50,594 nt of DNA from Planctomycetota bacterium (lineage in GTDB: Bacteria; Planctomycetota; Phycisphaerae; Sedimentisphaerales; Anaerobacaceae), in assembly GCA_022563885.1 (NCBI GenBank), contig JADFMM010000010.1, positions 1-50,594 of the forward strand, given 5' to 3'. Each line of letters starts with the position of its first letter. The stretch's first letter is position 1. The notes under the pieces are model-generated. The model saw only the letters and a list, made by a program, of their open reading frames with translations, was not told the DNA's origin and made no database searches. A program made the translations under genes and the position numbers. Shown here piece after piece: positions 2,528 through 9,704 of the stretch.

Positions 2528-2750
2528 GGAACCTCAGCAAAACTGTTGCGATGGCCAGAGGCAGGTGGGTTTCGTTGGAGAATCCAAGGCTACCATTTAA
2601 CATCACCACCGGGACTTGTCTTCTCGGATTGAGCCGGGTCGTGGTGCCCCTGACGCGGCCCCCGGTGCTTGTCGCACACCCTTGACTCTGCTAGAATCGC
2701 TACGGCACCTAGTAGGATCACGCGCAGCATTCATCGCAGCGGAAGTGCGT

Positions 2751-4328
2751 ATGGCGTTCATCGAACATTGGCGACACAAAGCCCAAGAAACCCTGACGAC
2801 CTGGGCCCGGCAACTCAAGCCCAGTAGCGTTCAGAGCCTCTATGCGTCGACGGTCGCCTTGACCCTTTGGCCGGTGGTGATGGCGCTCAAGGACCAGGGC
2901 AACCCGCTGGAGATCGGTATTGCACTGGCGGCGGTGACGGGGTCTGTCGGGGGCAATCTGCTGGCCACTCTCTTGCAGAGATTCAGAGACAAGACCCTCA
3001 CGCGGGAGCAATTTATAGCCGAGATGGGGCCGCAGTTGGAGGATCCTGCCCTGCGGGAGGCCGTGGATCCGATACTGGCGGAGTTGGAGGCCATGTCCAC
3101 CGTTCAACGAGAACTGCGCGGTGCGCTCAAGGAGGAATTCGTGCAGACCCTGCGCAAAGAACTTGAACGACTCGGAAACCTCTCCCGCTTCGAGGCCCAA
3201 TTGTCCGGCGGCAGTGCTCAGGCGATTGGTGACAGGAACAAGGTGGTCGGAAGTGGCATGCTGGTTGACGGTGACGTGGGCGGACACGTTGTCGGTCCGC
3301 ATGGGACGCTGATGGATCATAGCACTCACTACCACGGGGCCGGACGGGACGACGTCACCCCCTCTTACAGCGAGACCGATCAGCGACGGATCTACCTCAA
3401 GCATCTCTTTGAAGACGCCGAGCACATCTCCCTGCAGAGCTTCGCCAAGGAAGAGGCGGACAAGGCGACTTCCCTGGTCAAGCTTGGATCGATCTATACG
3501 GCCCTGGGAACCAAGGAACTCCGGGACGCGCAAGGGCAAGGTGACAGAAGCGGCAAAGATCAGATGCGGCCCAGGGAACAGGCTTGCCGTTCGGCCCTGG
3601 ATCTAGCCAACAGCACCTCACGCCTGGTGCTGCTGGGTGACCCGGGCAGTGGCAAGAGCACGTTCCTCAACTACCTGTGTCTCTGTCTGACCGGTGAGGG
3701 ACTCGGAAACGAGGAGATCAACCTGAGCCAACTGACTCGCACACTCCCCCAAGACGAGGAGAGCGACGAGCCGGATCCTGCTCATTGGGACCATGGGGAT
3801 TGTCTGCCGATCTTCGTTCAACTCCGCGATTTCGCCGTCAAGGGCCTGCCCGCGGGAGAGGAGCGGGGATCCGCCCTCCACCTGTGGAACTACCTCAAGG
3901 CAATGTTGGAACGGTGGGGCATCGGCGCGTTCACCGCGGCGCTGCAGCATGAGGCCCAAGACGCAAAAAAGAGAACACTGCTTTTGCTCGACGGCTTGGA
4001 TGAGGTCCCCAACCCAGAGGACCAGCGACGTCAGCTCAAGGAGATCATCGAAGATTTTGCAAGAGTACGCACTGCCGCATCATCGTCACCAGCCGCACCT
4101 ACGCCTATCAGAAACAGGACTGGGGCCTCGACGGCTTCTCCTCCGCGGAGTTGGCGCCCTTCAACGAGCCTCAGATTCGCCGCTTCATCGACCAGTGGTA
4201 TGCCTACCAGGTCCACACGAAACAACGAGACGCGGACGACGCCCAGGGCAGGGCCAAGCTGCTGGCGGAGGCCATCTTTCGCAAGAATCGACATCTCGAA
4301 GGACTCGCCGAGCGGCCGCTGCTGTTGA
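2751..4328 (+). CDS. NACHT-FGE conflict protein copy 1, N-terminal part (frameshifted)
   Basis: Residues 1 to about 440 match the N-terminal half of the downstream paralog (6266-9535). There is a helical, partly hydrophobic N-terminal domain (SLYASTVALTLWPVVMAL; IGIALAAVTGSVGGNLLATL), a conserved LERLGNLSRFEAQLSGGSAQ segment, a Gly/Asp-rich linker (GDRNKVVGSGMLVDGDVGGH), then NACHT Walker A GDPGSGKST (about residue 297) and Walker B LLLLDGLDEVP (about 409). I chose ATG 2751 because it aligns with the paralog's start; an in-frame TTG at 2616 is less likely. Alignment fails after DFARVR. Between 4062 and 4073 one base appears to be missing, and the NACHT sequence (CRIIVTSRTYAYQ) resumes in another frame from 4073. 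The residues up to 4328 in this frame are therefore nonsense. Either the gene is genuinely broken or the base is an assembly error. Confidence 0.8.
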   Translation: MAFIEHWRHKAQETLTTWARQLKPSSVQSLYASTVALTLWPVVMALKDQGNPLEIGIALAAVTGSVGGNLLATLLQRFRDKTLTREQFIAEMGPQLEDPALREAVDPILAELEAMSTVQRELRGALKEEFVQTLRKELERLGNLSRFEAQLSGGSAQAIGDRNKVVGSGMLVDGDVGGHVVGPHGTLMDHSTHYHGAGRDDVTPSYSETDQRRIYLKHLFEDAEHISLQSFAKEEADKATSLVKLGSIYTALGTKELRDAQGQGDRSGKDQMRPREQACRSALDLANSTSRLVLLGDPGSGKSTFLNYLCLCLTGEGLGNEEINLSQLTRTLPQDEESDEPDPAHWDHGDCLPIFVQLRDFAVKGLPAGEERGSALHLWNYLKAMLERWGIGAFTAALQHEAQDAKKRTLLLLDGLDEVPNPEDQRRQLKEIIEDFARVRTAASSSPAAPTPIRNRTGASTASPPRSWRPSTSLRFAASSTSGMPTRSTRNNETRTTPRAGPSCWRRPSFARIDISKDSPSGRCC

Positions 4329-5968
4329 CCCTCATGGCCGTGCTCCACTCCTGGCATGGCCGGGAACTGCCCGAGAGGCGGGTCGAACTCTACGAGCAGA
4401 CACTGGATCTGCTGATCCACCGTTGGGACAGCACGAAACAACGTCTGGATCGAAGCGGCCGTGAGAAGCTCCGGAATGAGGCCTTCAGCCAGTGGTTGAG
4501 TACGGGCCGTGGAGAGCTGCGCCTGCTACTCGAACGACTGGCCTTCGAGGCCCATGGCCGACAGGGACCGGGCAGCGACACGGCCGATGTCCCCAAGGAG
4601 GACCTGATCCTCGGCTTGACGCAGATCGGCAAGAACGCCCCGACAGACGACATCGAGGAACATCTTAAGGACCGCATGGGTATCCTGATCGAACGGGGCC
4701 ATGAGGTCTTTACCTTCCCCCATCGCACCTTCCAGGAGTATCTGGCGGCCTGTCACCTGACCCGCGTGGGATTCCCCGGCCAGGTGGCCGACCTGACCCG
4801 TGGCGATCCGCAGCGCTGGCGTGAGGTGACACAATTGGTGGGACTGAAGGTCAACACGGCGCATTCGGCCCTGGCCCTGATGGAACGGCTTTGCGGCGCC
4901 GGTCGAACGAAGGCCGATGCCTGGGGCACGCTGATCGCCGGCGAGTTTCTGGCCGAGAGCGATCGCTGCGGACAGCTCGACACCTTTGAGAAGAAACAGT
5001 TTCAAACCTTCCGAAACCGTTTGACGATGGTCCTGGGCAACGATGCCTTGCCTGCCGGGGAACGGGCCTTGGCCGGACGCCTGTTGGCTCAACTGGGCGA
5101 TCCACGCAAAGAGGTGATGACCGTGGAAGGCATGGCCTTTCAGGAGATGCCTGCTGGTCCCTTTTGGATGGGCTCCGCCGAGCACGATAAGGAGGCCAGG
5201 GAGAACGAAAAGCCAGTTTTCGAAAACCATTTGGACTACGACTACTTCCTGGCCCGCCATCCCCTCAGTAATGCCCAGTACCGCCATTTTGTAGAGGCGG
5301 GTGGCTACCGAGAAGAGCGTTTCTGGCCGGAAGCTGTCGCCGACGGCTGCTGGAAAGGGGGGAAGGTCACGGCCTGGGGCGACTGGACGGACTCTCCGGA
5401 GGGGCATGGACCTCCCTATAATCTGGACAATCATCCGGTTGTGGGTGTCAATTGGTACGAGGCTATGGCCTATTGTCACTGGTTGACTGAGACTCTGCAA
5501 GCGTCGAAGGGGACAGACCCAAAGCTCCGGAAACGCCTCGTCGGCGGCTGGCATGTCACATTGCCCTCGGAGGCCCAATGGGAAAGGGCGGCGCGCGGTG
5601 CAAAGGATCAGCGGATTTATCCTTGGGGCGATGAGGCGGATCCCGACAAGGCGAATTATGACGACACAGGCATTGGGACCACGTCGGCCGTTGGCTGTTT
5701 TCCCTTGGGACGTGGTCACGAGGGTTGCGAGGAGATGAGCGGCAACGTCTGGGAGTGGTGTCGCACCCCTTGGCAGGAGAACTACAAAAGCTACTCCAAT
5801 GAATCCGAAGCCGGTGGCAAGGAGCAGTCCCGCGTGCTTCGCGGCGGCTCGTACTTCAGCACCGCTCAGCTCGTGCGTTGCTCCTTCCGCGACTCGTTCC
5901 ATCCGTTCAACCGCAACGTCGACATTGGTTTTCGTGTGTGTGTCTGTCCCCATTTCTCTGAACTCTGA
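4151..5968 (+). CDS. NACHT-FGE conflict protein copy 1, C-terminal part with DGR variable region
   Basis: This frame continues the NACHT protein. True homology starts at 4073 (CRIIVTSRTYAYQK); TTG 4151 is only the first formal start in the frame. It holds the rest of the STAND module (LAPFNEPQIRRFIDQWY; RPLLLTLMAVLHSWHG; winged-helix signature FPHRTFQEYLAACH) and then an FGE-sulfatase/C-type-lectin domain from about 5116: MPAGPFWMG, HPLSNAQYRHFVEAGG, NHPVVGVNWYEAMAYCHWL, LPSEAQWERAARG, YPWGDE, EEMSGNVWEWCRTPW, RVLRGGSYFSTAQLVRCSF, NVDIGFRVCVC. The final block matches the variable regions of DGR target proteins. With the preceding frame the full protein would be about 1,070 residues, close to its 1,089-residue paralog. 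Proteins combining STAND ATPases with FGE-type sensors are known from bacterial conflict systems; the ligand is unknown. Confidence 0.85.
   Translation: MAPFNEPQIRRFIDQWYAYQVHTKQRDADDAQGRAKLLAEAIFRKNRHLEGLAERPLLLTLMAVLHSWHGRELPERRVELYEQTLDLLIHRWDSTKQRLDRSGREKLRNEAFSQWLSTGRGELRLLLERLAFEAHGRQGPGSDTADVPKEDLILGLTQIGKNAPTDDIEEHLKDRMGILIERGHEVFTFPHRTFQEYLAACHLTRVGFPGQVADLTRGDPQRWREVTQLVGLKVNTAHSALALMERLCGAGRTKADAWGTLIAGEFLAESDRCGQLDTFEKKQFQTFRNRLTMVLGNDALPAGERALAGRLLAQLGDPRKEVMTVEGMAFQEMPAGPFWMGSAEHDKEARENEKPVFENHLDYDYFLARHPLSNAQYRHFVEAGGYREERFWPEAVADGCWKGGKVTAWGDWTDSPEGHGPPYNLDNHPVVGVNWYEAMAYCHWLTETLQASKGTDPKLRKRLVGGWHVTLPSEAQWERAARGAKDQRIYPWGDEADPDKANYDDTGIGTTSAVGCFPLGRGHEGCEEMSGNVWEWCRTPWQENYKSYSNESEAGGKEQSRVLRGGSYFSTAQLVRCSFRDSFHPFNRNVDIGFRVCVCPHFSEL
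5798..5923 (+). other. DGR variable region 1 (VR1)
   Basis: Compared with 9365-9490 the two copies differ at 5798, 5804, 5853, 5855, 5856, 5858, 5859, 5870, 5886, 5907, 5915, 5919 and 5921, and nowhere else between 5732 and 5992. All changes are at codon positions 1 or 2, and 11 of 13 have A in one copy. Diversified residues here are N, S, then Y-F-S, L, F, F and N-V-D. Nearly all variable codons end in C, as expected for template codons of the AAC/TAC type mutated at adenines. The sequence IGFRV just after the region is the classical end of DGR lectin-fold variable regions. Confidence 0.9.
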
Positions 5969-5992
5969 ACCCTCTGCACTCTGATACTCTGA
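5924..5992 (+). other. invariant tail after VR1 (putative IMH region) with 8-bp tandem repeats
   Basis: From 5924 through the stop codon (5966-5968) to 5992 the sequence is identical to 9491-9559, then identity ends abruptly. DGRs need an invariant initiation-of-mutagenic-homing sequence immediately 3' of the variable region, and this block is positioned for that role. Its distal part is a degenerate tandem repeat (ACTCTGAA, CCCTCTGC, ACTCTGAT, ACTCTGA). Confidence 0.6.
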
Positions 5993-6012
5993 CTTTTACG
6001 GAGAACTACCTG

Positions 6013-6279
6013 ATGGCGGACAAAGACATGATCATTTTCGTCAGGACCTTTGATTTCCTCAGCTGGCTGTTGCCGCTAACGAATCACTTTCCTCGGGCTC
6101 ATCGGCACACGGTTACCAGGCGACTCCTGGACTCCGGCTTTGATTTCTTTGAGCGCATCCAGGCGGCCAATCATCGCATGGGACCGGCGCGCAGGGACAT
6201 GCTGATCGCCGCCGATGAGTCGCTGGCGAGTGTGAGAATGAGATGGAAGGAAAGGGCTCACCCACATGGGATTGTTTGA
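6013..6279 (+). CDS. avd: Avd-like four-helix-bundle protein, C-terminally truncated
   Basis: The 88-residue product resembles the N-terminal three helices of DGR accessory variability determinants (the bAvd / 23S-rRNA-intervening-sequence protein fold): helix 1 IIFVRTFDFLSWLLPLTNHF, then PRAHRHTVTRRLLDSGFDFF, then an acidic/basic helix ending ADESLASVRMRWK. Characteristic features are the aromatic-rich first helix followed by FPRAHR. Avd homologues are usually about 115-130 residues, so the last helix is missing. The gene ends in HPHGIV and overlaps the next gene's start by 14 nt. ATG 6013 has an ACGGAGA ribosome binding site. Avd normally forms a ring that binds the DGR reverse transcriptase and template RNA. 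Its position between two variable-region genes is strong support. Whether the shortened form works is unknown. Confidence 0.7.
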   Translation: MADKDMIIFVRTFDFLSWLLPLTNHFPRAHRHTVTRRLLDSGFDFFERIQAANHRMGPARRDMLIAADESLASVRMRWKERAHPHGIV

Positions 6280-9200
6280 ATTCCTGACGGATTGGAAGAT
6301 GAAAGCCGAGACGCGAATCACCGACTGGGCCGCCAGATTCCAGGCCAGCTCCACGAATGCGGTGTATGGCACGCTGGTGAGCATGGGCTTGCTACCGGTG
6401 GTGGAGGCGTTGGCGAGTGGGGCGGATCCTCAGATGATCGAGAGAGCACTGGCTACGGTGCTGACGTCGGTGGGAGGTAGCCTGCTTGCCGGTGAACTGA
6501 AGGCGTGGCTCAGTGCCGCGGGCTCCGAAGAGGCCTTCGTCCGCAAGGTGACTGAGAGGTTATCCGATCCCGAGTTCCGTAAGGTGGCGGATGAGGTCGT
6601 TAGCGAATTGGATGCGATCGGTGTCGCCAAGCAGGCGGTGCCCGCAGAACTGCAAGACGAGTTTGTTGCCAGCCTGACCAAAGAGTTGCAGCGTTTGGGC
6701 AACCTATCAAAGTTTGAGGCCCAGTTGTCCGGCGGCAGCGCTCAGGTGATCGGGGAACACAACAAGGTTGTTGGCAGCGGGCAATTGATCGACGGGAATG
6801 TGGCAGGTGACGTCCTGGGAAAAGGGGCCGTCAAGACGACGCTCTATGATAATCGCCGACAAACCATCCATGTGACAGAGGCCCAAGACGAGAGTCCCGA
6901 TGCCCGAAGCATCAGGAAGGCCTATCTGGAATGGGTCTTCGAGCGAGACGGCAAGCTGACCCTGGAGGGGATCGATCCGGCCACCGCCTCCGGTGAGAAG
7001 GAGCCGATGCGTCTCAATCATGTCTACACCACCTTGATGACGATGTCGACCGATGAGCAGCGGCGTCTCCTCAAGGAAGGCCAGCCGATAGCGACTGACC
7101 GTCTGCTTTCGGCGGTGGAGATGACGTGCCGGCACAGGCACCTCGTGCTGCTGGGTGACCCGGGCAGCGGCAAGAGCACCTTCGTCAGTTACCTGTCTCT
7201 ATGTATGGCGGGTGAGATTCTGGGAAGGGCCGAGGCCAATCTAGCCGTGTTGTCTCGCTATCTGCATGAGGACGACGAGAAGGAAGAGAAAAGGCCTGCG
7301 CGATTCGACCAGTCGCTGATACCGGTCAAGGTCATCTTGCGGGATTACGTCTCCGCACGGCTGGAAAACCCCAACCTGAGCTTGTGGCAGTTCATACAGG
7401 TCGTCCTGCAGAGGCATGATCTAGGCGAATTTGGCAACATTCTCAAACTGGAACTGACCGAGACCGGTGGCATGATTCTGCTGGACGGCTTGGATGAGGT
7501 GCCGCAGAGCGAGGGGCATCGCGAGGCAATGATCGAGCGGGTGGGGCATTTCCGTGAACGCTTTTCCAAATGCCGTATCTTGGTGACCAGTCGTACCTAC
7601 GCCTATGAAAAACAACAGTGGCAGCTACCGGAATTTACGTCGGTGGTTCTGGCGCCCTTCAACGATGAGCAGATTGAGTTCTTCGTGCGCCGCTGGTATG
7701 AGCAGGTGGCTGGGCAACGTGCTTGGACAGAGGAAGATCGCGAGAGCCGTAGTCAACGACTACTGTTGGCCATCCAGGGCAATGACAAGCTGAGGGAGTT
7801 GGCTTGTCGTCCGATCCTGTTGACCCTAATGGCCGGCCTCCACGCCTGGCGGGGCGGGACCCTTCCCGATGGGCGGCAGCGACTCTACGCCGAGATCTTT
7901 CCGCTGCTTTTGGATCGCTGGGAACAGCCCAAGTATGGCATGGACGACAAAGGGCAACTCAAGATAGAGGAGCCTGCCGTCAGCGAGTACTTCAAGACAG
8001 ACAAAGAAGCGCTTCGGAGGATGCTGGAAAAGCTGGCCTATGACGCCCACGCCAAACAAGAGGAATGTCATGGCACTGCGGACATTGCCGGCGATTCCCT
8101 CGCTGAGGCCTTACTGACCCTGTGTGCGCATGCCGATCGGGAACAGCGCCCCGATCCGGTCGAACTACAGGCCTACCTCGAGAATCGGGCCGGTATCCTT
8201 CATGAGCGGGGCGGCGGGATCTATGCCTTTCCCCATCGCAGCTTTCAGGAATATTTGGCAGCCTGTTACTGTACGAGTCTGGACAATTTCACGGAACATA
8301 TGGCGGGGCTGGCGGTGAAGGATCCCGACCGCTGGCGCGAGGTCTGTCTACTGGCGGCTGCTGAAGCAAAAGGCATGGCCGGATTGACCTGGGATCTCGT
8401 CGATGAACTGTTTGATGAAGGGGCATCGAAGAAAAAACGTTGGTCGAATGAGGATAAGTGGGGCCTTCTTCTGGCTGCGCAGGTGATTCAGGAGTCTTGT
8501 AGTCTCAAGGGCCTGAGCGGCGCCAAACAGAGCAAGGTGGATCGGATCCGTAAGTCTCTCCCCCGATTGTTGGGCTCTGACTTACCGGCCACGGAACGTG
8601 CCCTGGCCGGGCGCCTCTTGGCACAACTGGGTGATCCGCGTAAAGAGGTCATGACCGTGGCAGCAATGCCCTTTCATGAGGTGCCCGCCGGACCCTTCTG
8701 GATGGGATGTGCCGAGCACGATCAGGAGGCCTATGAAGATGAAAAACCGGGGTTTGAGAACAATCTTGATGATGGCTACTTCCTGGCCCGCTACCCCGTC
8801 AGCAATGCCCAGTACAGGTACTTCGTGGAGGCCGGTGGCTACCGAGAAGAACGCTTCTGGCCGGAGGCTCTTGCTGATGAACGTTGGAAAAATGGGAAGC
8901 TCCGAGTGACAACGTGGAGGTATGCGGGCGAGTTGAAGAAGAAAGAGGAACAGGCAGACAGGCCCGCTGGCCACAGTACACCATTCGACCTGGCCAACCA
9001 TCCGGTGGTGGGCGTGAGTTGGTACGAGGCCATGGCCTTCTGTCATTGGCTGGCGGACCACCTGAAGACGGCGAAAGGGGTGGCGCCCCAGGTGCGTGAG
9101 CGTTTGAACCAAGGTTGGCGGATCAGCTTGCCCTCCGAGGCCCAATGGGAGAAGGCGGCCCGGGGTGTGGAAGACCATCGCCTTTACCCCTGGGGCGACA

Positions 9201-9535
9201 AACCAGACGGTGATAAGGCGAGCTACCGTGAAACCAAGGTTGGGAGTACGTCGGCCCTAGGCTGCTTTCCTCGGGGACACAGTCCCTCCAAGTGCGAAGA
9301 GATGAGCGGCAACGTCTGGGAGTGGTGTCGCACCCCTTGGCAGGAGAACTACAAAAGCTACTCCGATGAAACCGAAGCCGGTGGCAAGGAGCAGTCCCGC
9401 GTGCTTCGCGGCGGCTCGTTCAACTACACCGCTCAGGTCGTGCGTTGCTCCTACCGCGACTCGTTCCATCCGTACAACCGCTACGGCAACATTGGTTTTC
9501 GTGTGTGTGTCTGTCCCCATTTCTCTGAACTCTGA
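6266..9535 (+). CDS. NACHT-FGE conflict protein copy 2 (intact), DGR target
   Basis: The intact 1,089-residue protein has these parts. Residues 1-150 are a helical domain with hydrophobic runs (AVYGTLVSMGLLPVVEAL; ALATVLTSVGGSLLAGEL) that I do not recognise and that may be the effector. About 150-205 carry LQRLGNLSKFEAQLSGGSAQ and a Gly/Asp-rich linker. About 290-660 are NACHT: Walker A GDPGSGKST near 295, Walker B MILLDGLDEVP near 402, RILVTSRTYAYE near 437, and YAFPHRSFQEYLAACY near 653. From about 795 is an FGE-sulfatase/C-type-lectin domain ending in RVLRGGSFNYTAQVVRCSY and IGFRVCVC. ATG 6266 has the purine-rich site GGAAGGAAAGGG just before it and overlaps the Avd-like gene, suggesting translational coupling. 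STAND ATPases oligomerise after sensing a ligand; here the diversified lectin domain is the likely sensor. The lectin fold is shared with formylglycine-generating enzyme, but I infer binding rather than catalysis. Confidence 0.9.
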   Translation: MGLFEFLTDWKMKAETRITDWAARFQASSTNAVYGTLVSMGLLPVVEALASGADPQMIERALATVLTSVGGSLLAGELKAWLSAAGSEEAFVRKVTERLSDPEFRKVADEVVSELDAIGVAKQAVPAELQDEFVASLTKELQRLGNLSKFEAQLSGGSAQVIGEHNKVVGSGQLIDGNVAGDVLGKGAVKTTLYDNRRQTIHVTEAQDESPDARSIRKAYLEWVFERDGKLTLEGIDPATASGEKEPMRLNHVYTTLMTMSTDEQRRLLKEGQPIATDRLLSAVEMTCRHRHLVLLGDPGSGKSTFVSYLSLCMAGEILGRAEANLAVLSRYLHEDDEKEEKRPARFDQSLIPVKVILRDYVSARLENPNLSLWQFIQVVLQRHDLGEFGNILKLELTETGGMILLDGLDEVPQSEGHREAMIERVGHFRERFSKCRILVTSRTYAYEKQQWQLPEFTSVVLAPFNDEQIEFFVRRWYEQVAGQRAWTEEDRESRSQRLLLAIQGNDKLRELACRPILLTLMAGLHAWRGGTLPDGRQRLYAEIFPLLLDRWEQPKYGMDDKGQLKIEEPAVSEYFKTDKEALRRMLEKLAYDAHAKQEECHGTADIAGDSLAEALLTLCAHADREQRPDPVELQAYLENRAGILHERGGGIYAFPHRSFQEYLAACYCTSLDNFTEHMAGLAVKDPDRWREVCLLAAAEAKGMAGLTWDLVDELFDEGASKKKRWSNEDKWGLLLAAQVIQESCSLKGLSGAKQSKVDRIRKSLPRLLGSDLPATERALAGRLLAQLGDPRKEVMTVAAMPFHEVPAGPFWMGCAEHDQEAYEDEKPGFENNLDDGYFLARYPVSNAQYRYFVEAGGYREERFWPEALADERWKNGKLRVTTWRYAGELKKKEEQADRPAGHSTPFDLANHPVVGVSWYEAMAFCHWLADHLKTAKGVAPQVRERLNQGWRISLPSEAQWEKAARGVEDHRLYPWGDKPDGDKASYRETKVGSTSALGCFPRGHSPSKCEEMSGNVWEWCRTPWQENYKSYSDETEAGGKEQSRVLRGGSFNYTAQVVRCSYRDSFHPYNRYGNIGFRVCVCPHFSEL
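9365..9490 (+). other. DGR variable region 2 (VR2)
   Basis: This is the counterpart of VR1 at a constant offset of 3567 bp. Diversified residues are D, T, then F-N-Y, V, Y, Y and Y-G-N (about residues 1034-1075). Unlike the flanking paralogous sequence, which has diverged at all codon positions, this segment shows no third-position change relative to VR1. The invariant tail at 9491-9559 follows. Confidence 0.9.
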
Positions 9536-9559
9536 ACCCTCTGCACTCTGATACTCTGA
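9491..9559 (+). other. invariant tail after VR2 (putative IMH region)
   Basis: This segment is base-for-base identical to 5924-5992, including the stop codon (9533-9535) and 24 bp of untranslated sequence. Identity ends exactly at 9559, after which the flanks are unrelated (GGGCGCGCC here, TTTTACGG after copy 1). The precise boundary supports recent conversion or homing into both loci. Confidence 0.6.
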
Positions 9560-9617
9560 ATGGGCGCGCCGAGGCGCAAGGCCCCAGAGAAAGACGTAAA
9601 GAGATAAGGCAGGCGAG

Positions 9618-9704
9618 GTGAGTCAGTTCGTGCTCGTGCTCGTAATCGGATTCTTTAATCTGTTTACGATTTCCAAGACGAGTACGATTACGATTACGAG
9701 GGGA
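9618..9704. repeat. CGTGCTCGTAATCG palindromic repeat (right copy)
   Basis: TCGTGCTCGTGCTCGTAATC (9629-9648) faces a reverse-complement-like arm, GACGAGTACGATTACGATTA, near 9678-9697, forming a hairpin with a loop of about 30 bp. It belongs to the same word family as the cluster at 1010-1200, so the two bracket the block 1289-9559. The 9560-9617 sequence before it contains another degenerate word (GAGGCGCAAGGC...AGAGAAAGACG) and no gene. Confidence 0.55.

What the first reader, a model, noticed from the sequence alone, without database searches (positions are those of the whole stretch)
5924..5992. Identity between copies extends 24 bp past the stop codon and ends abruptly
5924-5992 equals 9491-9559 exactly, although the flanks beyond differ completely. 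Selection on protein cannot explain identity in untranslated DNA. A required cis element (IMH-like) or a conversion tract can. It includes an 8-bp tandem repeat (ACTCTGAA-type) that might be part of the recognition structure.
Basis: partly seen in the sequence, partly recalled or inferred. Interest (0 to 1): 0.6.

Follow-up and report, generated by a model that had tools for sequence, protein, structure and literature searches.

The report
Repeat tail behind hypermutable gene ends
Two neighbouring sensor-like genes end in the same self-mutating cassette, and the identical DNA running past their stop codons is a short 7-letter repeat that also sits behind similar hypermutable genes in other bacterial phyla, apparently marking where the mutating machinery acts.

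Summary
5924-5992 equals 9491-9559 exactly, runs 24 bp past the stop codon and ends abruptly downstream. On the left it does not end abruptly: it is the 3' end of a 267-bp tract (5726-5992 / 9293-9559).

The tract is a pair of variable repeats (VRs) of diversity-generating-retroelement (DGR) type, at the ends of two tandem NACHT-FGE genes. Its 13 core mismatches all sit at positions 1 or 2 of codons ending in C/T; 11 involve A. A truncated avd gene lies between the genes. No DGR reverse transcriptase or template repeat (TR) was found in the assembly, so this is an orphan or degenerate DGR locus.

In relatives with an intact TR, the sequence beyond the stop codon is absent from the TR. It is a heptad repeat, often followed by a GC-rich GNA-loop hairpin, and VR paralogues share it. 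In 392 genomes of the phylum the window's tail (up to 3 mismatches) occurs four times, always directly after an FGE gene of DGR-target type.

Best reading: a target-site element of cellular DGRs, carried from gene to gene with the VR. Function is inferred, not tested. I found no description of the heptad tract in the papers available to me.

The parts
2616..5968 (+). Target gene 1: NACHT + C-terminal FGE (CLec-fold) gene, read as two ORFs (2616-4328 and 4151-5968) because of a frameshift near 4060-4075
   Evidence: ORFs; Pfam NACHT 2.5e-8 and FGE-sulfatase 2.5e-52
5726..5992 (+). Near-identical 267-bp tract, copy 1 (variable repeat plus flanks)
   Evidence: 95% identical to 9293-9559; identity falls to 53-77% per 30 bp upstream and ends at 5993
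5798..5921 (+). Variable codons, copy 1
   Evidence: 13 mismatches, none at codon position 3, 11 involving A, none C/T
5924..5992 (+). The reported 69-bp block, copy 1: non-mutated 3' end of the VR, stop codon and tail
   Evidence: Exact match to 9491-9559; its ten A residues are unchanged
5956..5992 (+). Heptad repeat tail, copy 1 (CTCTGAA type, about 5 copies), overlapping the stop codon
   Evidence: Tandem Repeats Finder period 7; repeat score 0.64 against a control median of 0.43
6013..6279 (+). Truncated avd (accessory variability determinant), 88 aa, lacking the C-terminal third of the profile
   Evidence: Pfam bAvd 9.8e-8, below its curated cut-off; NCBIfam DivGenRetAVD 5.4e-9, profile 1-69 of 104, below its curated cut-off
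6266..9535 (+). Target gene 2: intact NACHT + FGE gene, 1089 aa
   Evidence: Pfam NACHT 2.8e-12, FGE-sulfatase 6.5e-49
9293..9559 (+). Near-identical 267-bp tract, copy 2
9365..9488 (+). Variable codons, copy 2
   Evidence: Positions paired with 5798-5921
9491..9559 (+). The reported 69-bp block, copy 2
   Evidence: Exact match to 5924-5992
9523..9559 (+). Heptad repeat tail, copy 2
   Evidence: Tandem Repeats Finder period 7, 5.0 copies at 9523-9560
9562..9584 (+). Weak bulged GC-rich hairpin after copy 2, in the place where relatives have a GNA-loop hairpin; copy 1 has none
   Evidence: DNA fold -7.2 kcal/mol, z -1.19, not significant; 5993-6033 folds at -0.4; no GNA-loop hairpin in either copy

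Best explanation
5924-5992 and 9491-9559 are the 3' ends of two variable repeats of DGR type. SHOWN: the two VRs differ only at A-type codon positions; an avd fragment lies beside them; in relatives with a TR, TR homology ends near the stop codon while the VR continues into a heptad repeat tract and often a hairpin; VR paralogues in one locus share that tail. INFERRED: the tail is a cis-acting mark of the recipient site. With the IMH and hairpin it makes the VR, and not the TR, the acceptor of the mutated cDNA, perhaps as a landing stretch between the cDNA start point and the hairpin. Because retrohoming does not copy it, a gene can become or stay a target only by acquiring the whole 3' module (FGE segment, VR and tail) through recombination, which would explain identity past the stop in paralogues whose upstream halves are only about 70% identical. 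In this genome the locus is orphaned: RT and TR are not in the assembly, avd is truncated, gene 1 is frameshifted and the hairpin is missing or weak. Diversification is therefore past, or depends on parts in the unassembled few percent of the genome.
For: Codon and A bias of the VR differences and the sharp left boundary. avd fragment. 26 VR/TR pairs in relatives, with 80-100% of mismatches at TR adenines, whose TR lacks the tail. Heptad enrichment against 145 control gene ends, p=8e-13; lag-7 autocorrelation 0.46 against 0.27; GNA-loop hairpin 13/24 against 1/145. VR pairs in L147, L150, L154 and L179 share a tract longer than the TR that ends just past the hairpin. CTTTTACCCTTT...CC as bait: 12 of 14 sites directly behind FGE/CLec genes, including two remote targets that match the TR with 17/20 and 14/15 mismatches at A. 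The window's tail in 392 genomes: four hits, all behind FGE genes. Conserved CTCTG-type tails in FGE relatives from Chloroflexi, Acidobacteria and Gammaproteobacteria MAGs.
Against: The window's own TR is unknown, so absence of the tail from it is inferred from relatives. Four VRs that are followed by further coding sequence lack heptads, and L150 and L154 have weak or no heptads, so they cannot be required in every DGR of this RT family. The GNA-loop hairpin is absent from both window copies. Other short-repeat families occur in these genomes. VR samples are not phylogenetically independent. No experiment.
Confidence: 0.68

Rival explanations
1. Plain gene conversion or recent 3'-module duplication between the two paralogues: the tail is a passenger with no role, identical only because the event was recent.
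For: The VR-VR tract is longer than the expected TR homology on both sides, as in L147, L150 and L179. Duplication and recombination of target C-termini is described for clade-5 DGRs (PMC10907252).
Against: A passenger would not explain heptads behind DGR targets in other phyla, the genome-wide specificity or the enrichment over other gene ends. The tract in four separate loci ends just past the hairpin.
Confidence: 0.17
2. The TR of this species includes the tail, so ordinary retrohoming copies it into both VRs and the 69 bp are simply TR sequence without effective A mutagenesis.
For: The TR of this genome is not in the assembly and cannot be checked. DGR TR and VR share their 3' ends by definition.
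Against: In all relatives aligned the TR stops matching around the stop codon and lacks the heptads. Ten A residues in the block are unchanged while many upstream changed.
Confidence: 0.1
3. A generic intergenic short repeat or transcription terminator that happens to follow both genes.
For: Other short-repeat families occur in these genomes (CTCTGTGGCCTCTG-type arrays in the own genome). Hairpins after genes can be terminators.
Against: CTCTGAACTCTGAA occurs only at these two sites in the genome. All four phylum-wide hits of the longer tail follow FGE genes. The 145 control gene ends rarely show heptads or GNA hairpins.
Confidence: 0.05

Closest known systems
Bordetella phage BPP-1 DGR target site: IMH plus downstream hairpin/cruciform (Guo et al. 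2011, PMC3240598)
   Same: A cis element just downstream of the VR, beyond the end of TR/VR homology, at the end of a target gene; hairpins with GC-rich stems at a short distance from the VR (4-34 bp in phages).
   Different: Here a 7-bp-periodic tract of about 30-45 bp lies between VR and hairpin; loops in the relatives are mostly GNA triloops rather than GRNA tetraloops; in the window itself the hairpin is missing or weak.
Clade-5 cellular DGRs of multicellular bacteria, e.g. Thiohalocapsa PB-PSB1 (Dore et al. 2024, PMC10907252)
   Same: NACHT/STAND genes with C-terminal FGE/CLec targets, several targets per locus, degenerate loci without RT or TR, targets served in trans, duplicated C-terminal regions. 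That the relatives' RTs belong to clade 5 is my inference, not tested by a tree.
   Different: That paper describes MITE-like repeats replacing components; in the passages read it does not describe a heptad tail tied to the VR stop codon.
DUSEL4 archaeal DGRs (Paul et al. 2015, PMC4372165)
   Same: Hairpins near the VR with constrained GRA trinucleotide loops, like the GNA loops found here; fixed IMH versus IMH* differences.
   Different: Their hairpin lies inside the target gene; no tandem repeat tract is mentioned in the main text searched.

Membership tests
Diversity-generating retroelement (complete locus) | DGR-type reverse transcriptase | tested here: not met
   No hit of the DGR-RT alignment in the own genome at E<=1e-20; the RVT_1 hits read as group II intron pieces and a retron-like RT. 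The draft is 96% complete, so absence from the organism is not proved.
Diversity-generating retroelement (complete locus) | Template repeat matching the VR except at adenines | tested here: not met
   DNA search of the own genome returns only the two VR copies
DGR variable repeat / target gene | Differences confined to A-type positions, AAC-like codons, 3' end of the gene | tested here: met
   13 differences, none at codon position 3 (p=1e-4), 11 involve A (p=0.006); VR reaches the stop codon
DGR variable repeat / target gene | C-type-lectin-like (FGE) variable domain | tested here: met
   Pfam FGE-sulfatase 6.5e-49 and 2.5e-52; fold not modelled
DGR variable repeat / target gene | Accessory avd gene nearby | tested here: inconclusive
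   Truncated avd at 6013-6279: significant E-values but below both curated cut-offs
DGR target site (BPP-1 type) | IMH that differs from IMH* of the TR | not testable with these tools
   No TR in this genome; in relatives a fixed VR/TR difference near the end is visible in many loci
DGR target site (BPP-1 type) | GC-rich hairpin with GRNA (or GNA) loop downstream of the VR | tested here: not met
   No GNA-loop hairpin in either window copy; weak non-significant hairpin after copy 2 only. Met in 13 of 24 VRs of relatives.
Heptad-tailed cellular DGR targets (group defined here) | 7-bp-periodic pyrimidine-rich tract at the VR stop codon | tested here: met
   absence from the TR is shown only in relatives

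The most novel reading that the evidence does not exclude
Cellular DGR targets carry an undescribed recognition element, an array of about five imperfect heptads between VR and hairpin, found in several phyla. It is read by the machinery itself, possibly one heptad per subunit of the pentameric Avd ring (the ring is from my own knowledge of Avd, not tested here), and it marks recipient genes so that new and remote targets arise by acquiring it.
Probability: 0.13. Interest if true: 0.85.

Novelty: new variant of a known kind. Interest (0 to 1): 0.6.

Why it matters
How the DGR machinery tells a recipient gene from its template, and how it finds targets elsewhere in the genome, is open for cellular DGRs. 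A non-coding tail that follows the VR but not the TR is a concrete, deletable candidate. It also works as a genome-wide bait: with it, two targets were found on contigs without the RT and then confirmed by their match to that genome's TR.

Tried and rejected
Generic repeat: rejected for this block. Selection on protein: rejected, since there is no third-position change over 261 bp and identity continues past the stop. Recent duplication of the whole gene: rejected, since coding DNA just upstream is only 53-77% identical per 30 bp. The RT hits in the own genome as the DGR RT: rejected, they read as group II intron halves on contigs C355/C392 and a retron-like RT. Searches of viral contigs with avd, tail and VR end found nothing. 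PADLOC gave no hits. Tails fold less than control gene ends, but not beyond what their composition predicts (z not different), so 'selected to be unstructured' is not supported. The copies of CTCTGAACTCTGAA in G002 and G019 lie in other contexts; the G002 one is inside a coding frame. The pattern ACTCTGAACTCTGAACTCTGA (regular heptads) has no hit in the own genome, so the window tail is an irregular array. Comparing the window VRs with stretches of G778 and G788 did not yield a clear TR. One malformed region call (68), one rejected 'of' argument (46) and one rejected report (84) gave nothing.

Full report
WHAT IS THERE. The two 69-bp blocks are identical (5924-5992 and 9491-9559) and unique in the 6.5-Mb assembly. 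They end two tandem genes with NACHT and C-terminal FGE-sulfatase domains. Gene 1 is split by a frameshift near 4060-4075; gene 2 (6266-9535) is intact. Between them lies an 88-aa avd fragment (6013-6279; Pfam bAvd 9.8e-8; NCBIfam DivGenRetAVD 5.4e-9, profile 1-69 of 104; both below the curated cut-offs), cut off where gene 2 begins.

THE BLOCK IS PART OF A LARGER TRACT. Identity continues left to 5726/9293 at 95%, then falls to 53-77% per 30 bp. In 5732-5992 there are 13 differences: none at codon position 3 (upstream 45 of 83; p=1e-4), none C/T, 11 involving A (upstream 36 of 83; p=0.006). The 11 changed codons all end in C or T and pair as TTC/TAC, CTC/GTC, GTC/GGC and the like, as expected when AAC-type template codons are rewritten at A. 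This is the signature of DGR variable repeats. The ten A residues inside the 69-bp block are unchanged, so the block appears to lie outside the mutagenised part.

THE LOCUS IS INCOMPLETE. A profile of DGR RTs from three relatives finds nothing in the own genome at E<=1e-20. The three RVT_1 hits are, by my reading of their sequences, a group II intron RT split over two contigs and a retron-like RT. No TR is found. The layout target-avd-target resembles L094 (target-avd-RT-TR-target) with RT, TR and the end of avd missing.

RELATIVES WITH A TR. In loci around DGR RTs and FGE relatives, 26 VRs were matched to a TR with 80-100% of mismatches at TR adenines. Aligned at the 3' end, TR and VR diverge around the stop codon; in many, a fixed VR G / TR C difference sits just before the end. 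What follows in the VR is a tract such as CCCTTTGCTCTTTGGCCTTTTGCCCTTTGCCC (L169), ATACTTTGCTCTTTTTACCTTTTACCCTTTA (L147) or TCTCTGGACTCTCTGTTCTCTG (L079). The TR does not have it. Against 145 other gene ends from the same loci and the window, the VR tails are more repetitive (p=8e-13) and more pyrimidine-rich (p=5e-7), with an autocorrelation peak at lag 7 (0.46 against 0.27 in controls). They are often followed by a GC-rich hairpin with a C-GNA-G loop: 13 of 24 against 1 of 145. Four VRs that are followed by more coding sequence (L145, L148, L172, L173) lack the heptads and were left out of the last two tests.

VR PARALOGUES SHARE THE TAIL. In L147, L150, L154 and L179, VR pairs in one locus share a stretch past the end of TR homology that ends shortly after the hairpin. 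In L147, L150 and L179 the shared tract also extends upstream of the TR-matching part, while sequence further upstream is diverged or unrelated. In L154 the genes are similar throughout, so that pair is less informative. L094 shares VR and tail but not the hairpin. This is the same geometry as in the window. Since those TRs lack the tail, retrohoming cannot have spread it. Recombination between target genes, moving the whole 3' module, is the simplest mechanism; [quoted passage not shown]

SPECIFICITY. In 12 DGR-positive genomes the motif CTTTTACCCTTT followed within 8 bases by CC occurs at 14 separate sites. Twelve lie directly behind FGE/CLec genes or, for one at a contig edge, behind a stretch identical to such a tail; two (G147:C432, G097:C70) do not. 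Two of the twelve (G195:C1 and G195:C36) are on contigs other than the RT's, yet match that genome's TR with 17 of 20 and 14 of 15 mismatches at TR adenines. The motif was chosen from some of these same loci, so only the sites outside them are an independent test. The window's own tail as a 28-bp pattern with up to 3 mismatches was sought in 392 genomes of the phylum: four hits, two in the window and one each in G788 and G778, and both of these follow FGE genes ending in GFR.... CTCTG-type tails also follow FGE relatives in Chloroflexi, Acidobacteria and Gammaproteobacteria MAGs, nearly identical to the window's in L032. Generic short repeats do exist in these genomes, and the own genome has another CTCTG-rich dispersed family, but not this tail.

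MECHANISM. Shown: VR signature; tail absent from the TR in relatives; sharing of the tail among targets; enrichment and specificity. Inferred: the tail is a target-site element. In BPP-1 a hairpin 3' of the VR, beyond TR homology, is needed for efficient retrohoming and affects efficiency, not the site of integration (PMC3240598). In a reconstituted system the cDNA seems to use transiently single-stranded target DNA, and the authors suggest the stem-loop prolongs the open state (PMC12875486). A tract between IMH and hairpin could serve the same purpose, act as a spacer, or be bound by the RT-Avd complex. Tails fold weakly on both strands, but no more weakly than their composition predicts, so structure avoidance is not demonstrated.

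STATE OF THIS LOCUS. Frameshifted gene 1, truncated avd, no RT or TR, and missing or weak hairpins point to a degenerate locus or one served in trans. Comparable degenerate loci are described in Thiohalocapsa (PMC10907252). An assembly gap cannot be excluded.

LIMITS. VRs within a genome or family are not independent; control gene ends are mechanical ORFs; taxonomy of the G genomes is hidden; the literature library is partial, so 'undescribed' means not found in the searches or in the passages read.

Noticed in passing
L145, L148, L172, L173 (downstream of the VR): In these DGR loci the VR is followed by more coding sequence that reads like a PEP-CTERM sorting signal (for example VPEPGSLAMLAFAGVGMLVRRRG in L148, read by eye), so the diversified proteins may be sorted to the cell surface. 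They lack the heptad tail.
   Followed up: partly
G000 contigs C65, C187, C189, C258, C260 (L181, L183, L184, L191, L192): A dispersed repeat family in the window's own genome, ACCACAGAGGACACCGAGG...CTCTGTGGCCTCTGCGTCCTCTGTGGT, with inverted ends; MITE-like and unrelated to the DGR tail.
   Followed up: no
window 9628-9699: Two further short tandem repeats (TCGTGC and ACGATT units) close behind the tail of copy 2, before the glycyl-tRNA synthetase-like gene on the minus strand.
   Followed up: no
window 4060-4075: Frameshift in the NACHT part of gene 1: real pseudogenisation or an assembly error, cannot be told without reads.
   Followed up: partly
L025 about 1455-1545: In a same-genus genome, a short-repeat stretch (GGCTGAAGGCTGAAG...AACTCTGAACTCTGAACTCAGAACTC) lies in frame inside a gene that looks like a CMP-KDO synthetase (kdsB).
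   Followed up: no
L005 and L007 (G000 contigs C355 and C392): A reverse transcriptase of group II intron type is split over two contig ends with overlapping sequence, so the assembly probably broke at a multicopy intron.
   Followed up: no
L094 2439-2561: One of the two VRs of this complete-looking DGR locus is out of frame with its gene (a stop falls inside the VR), so a locus with RT, TR and avd can carry a broken target.
   Followed up: no
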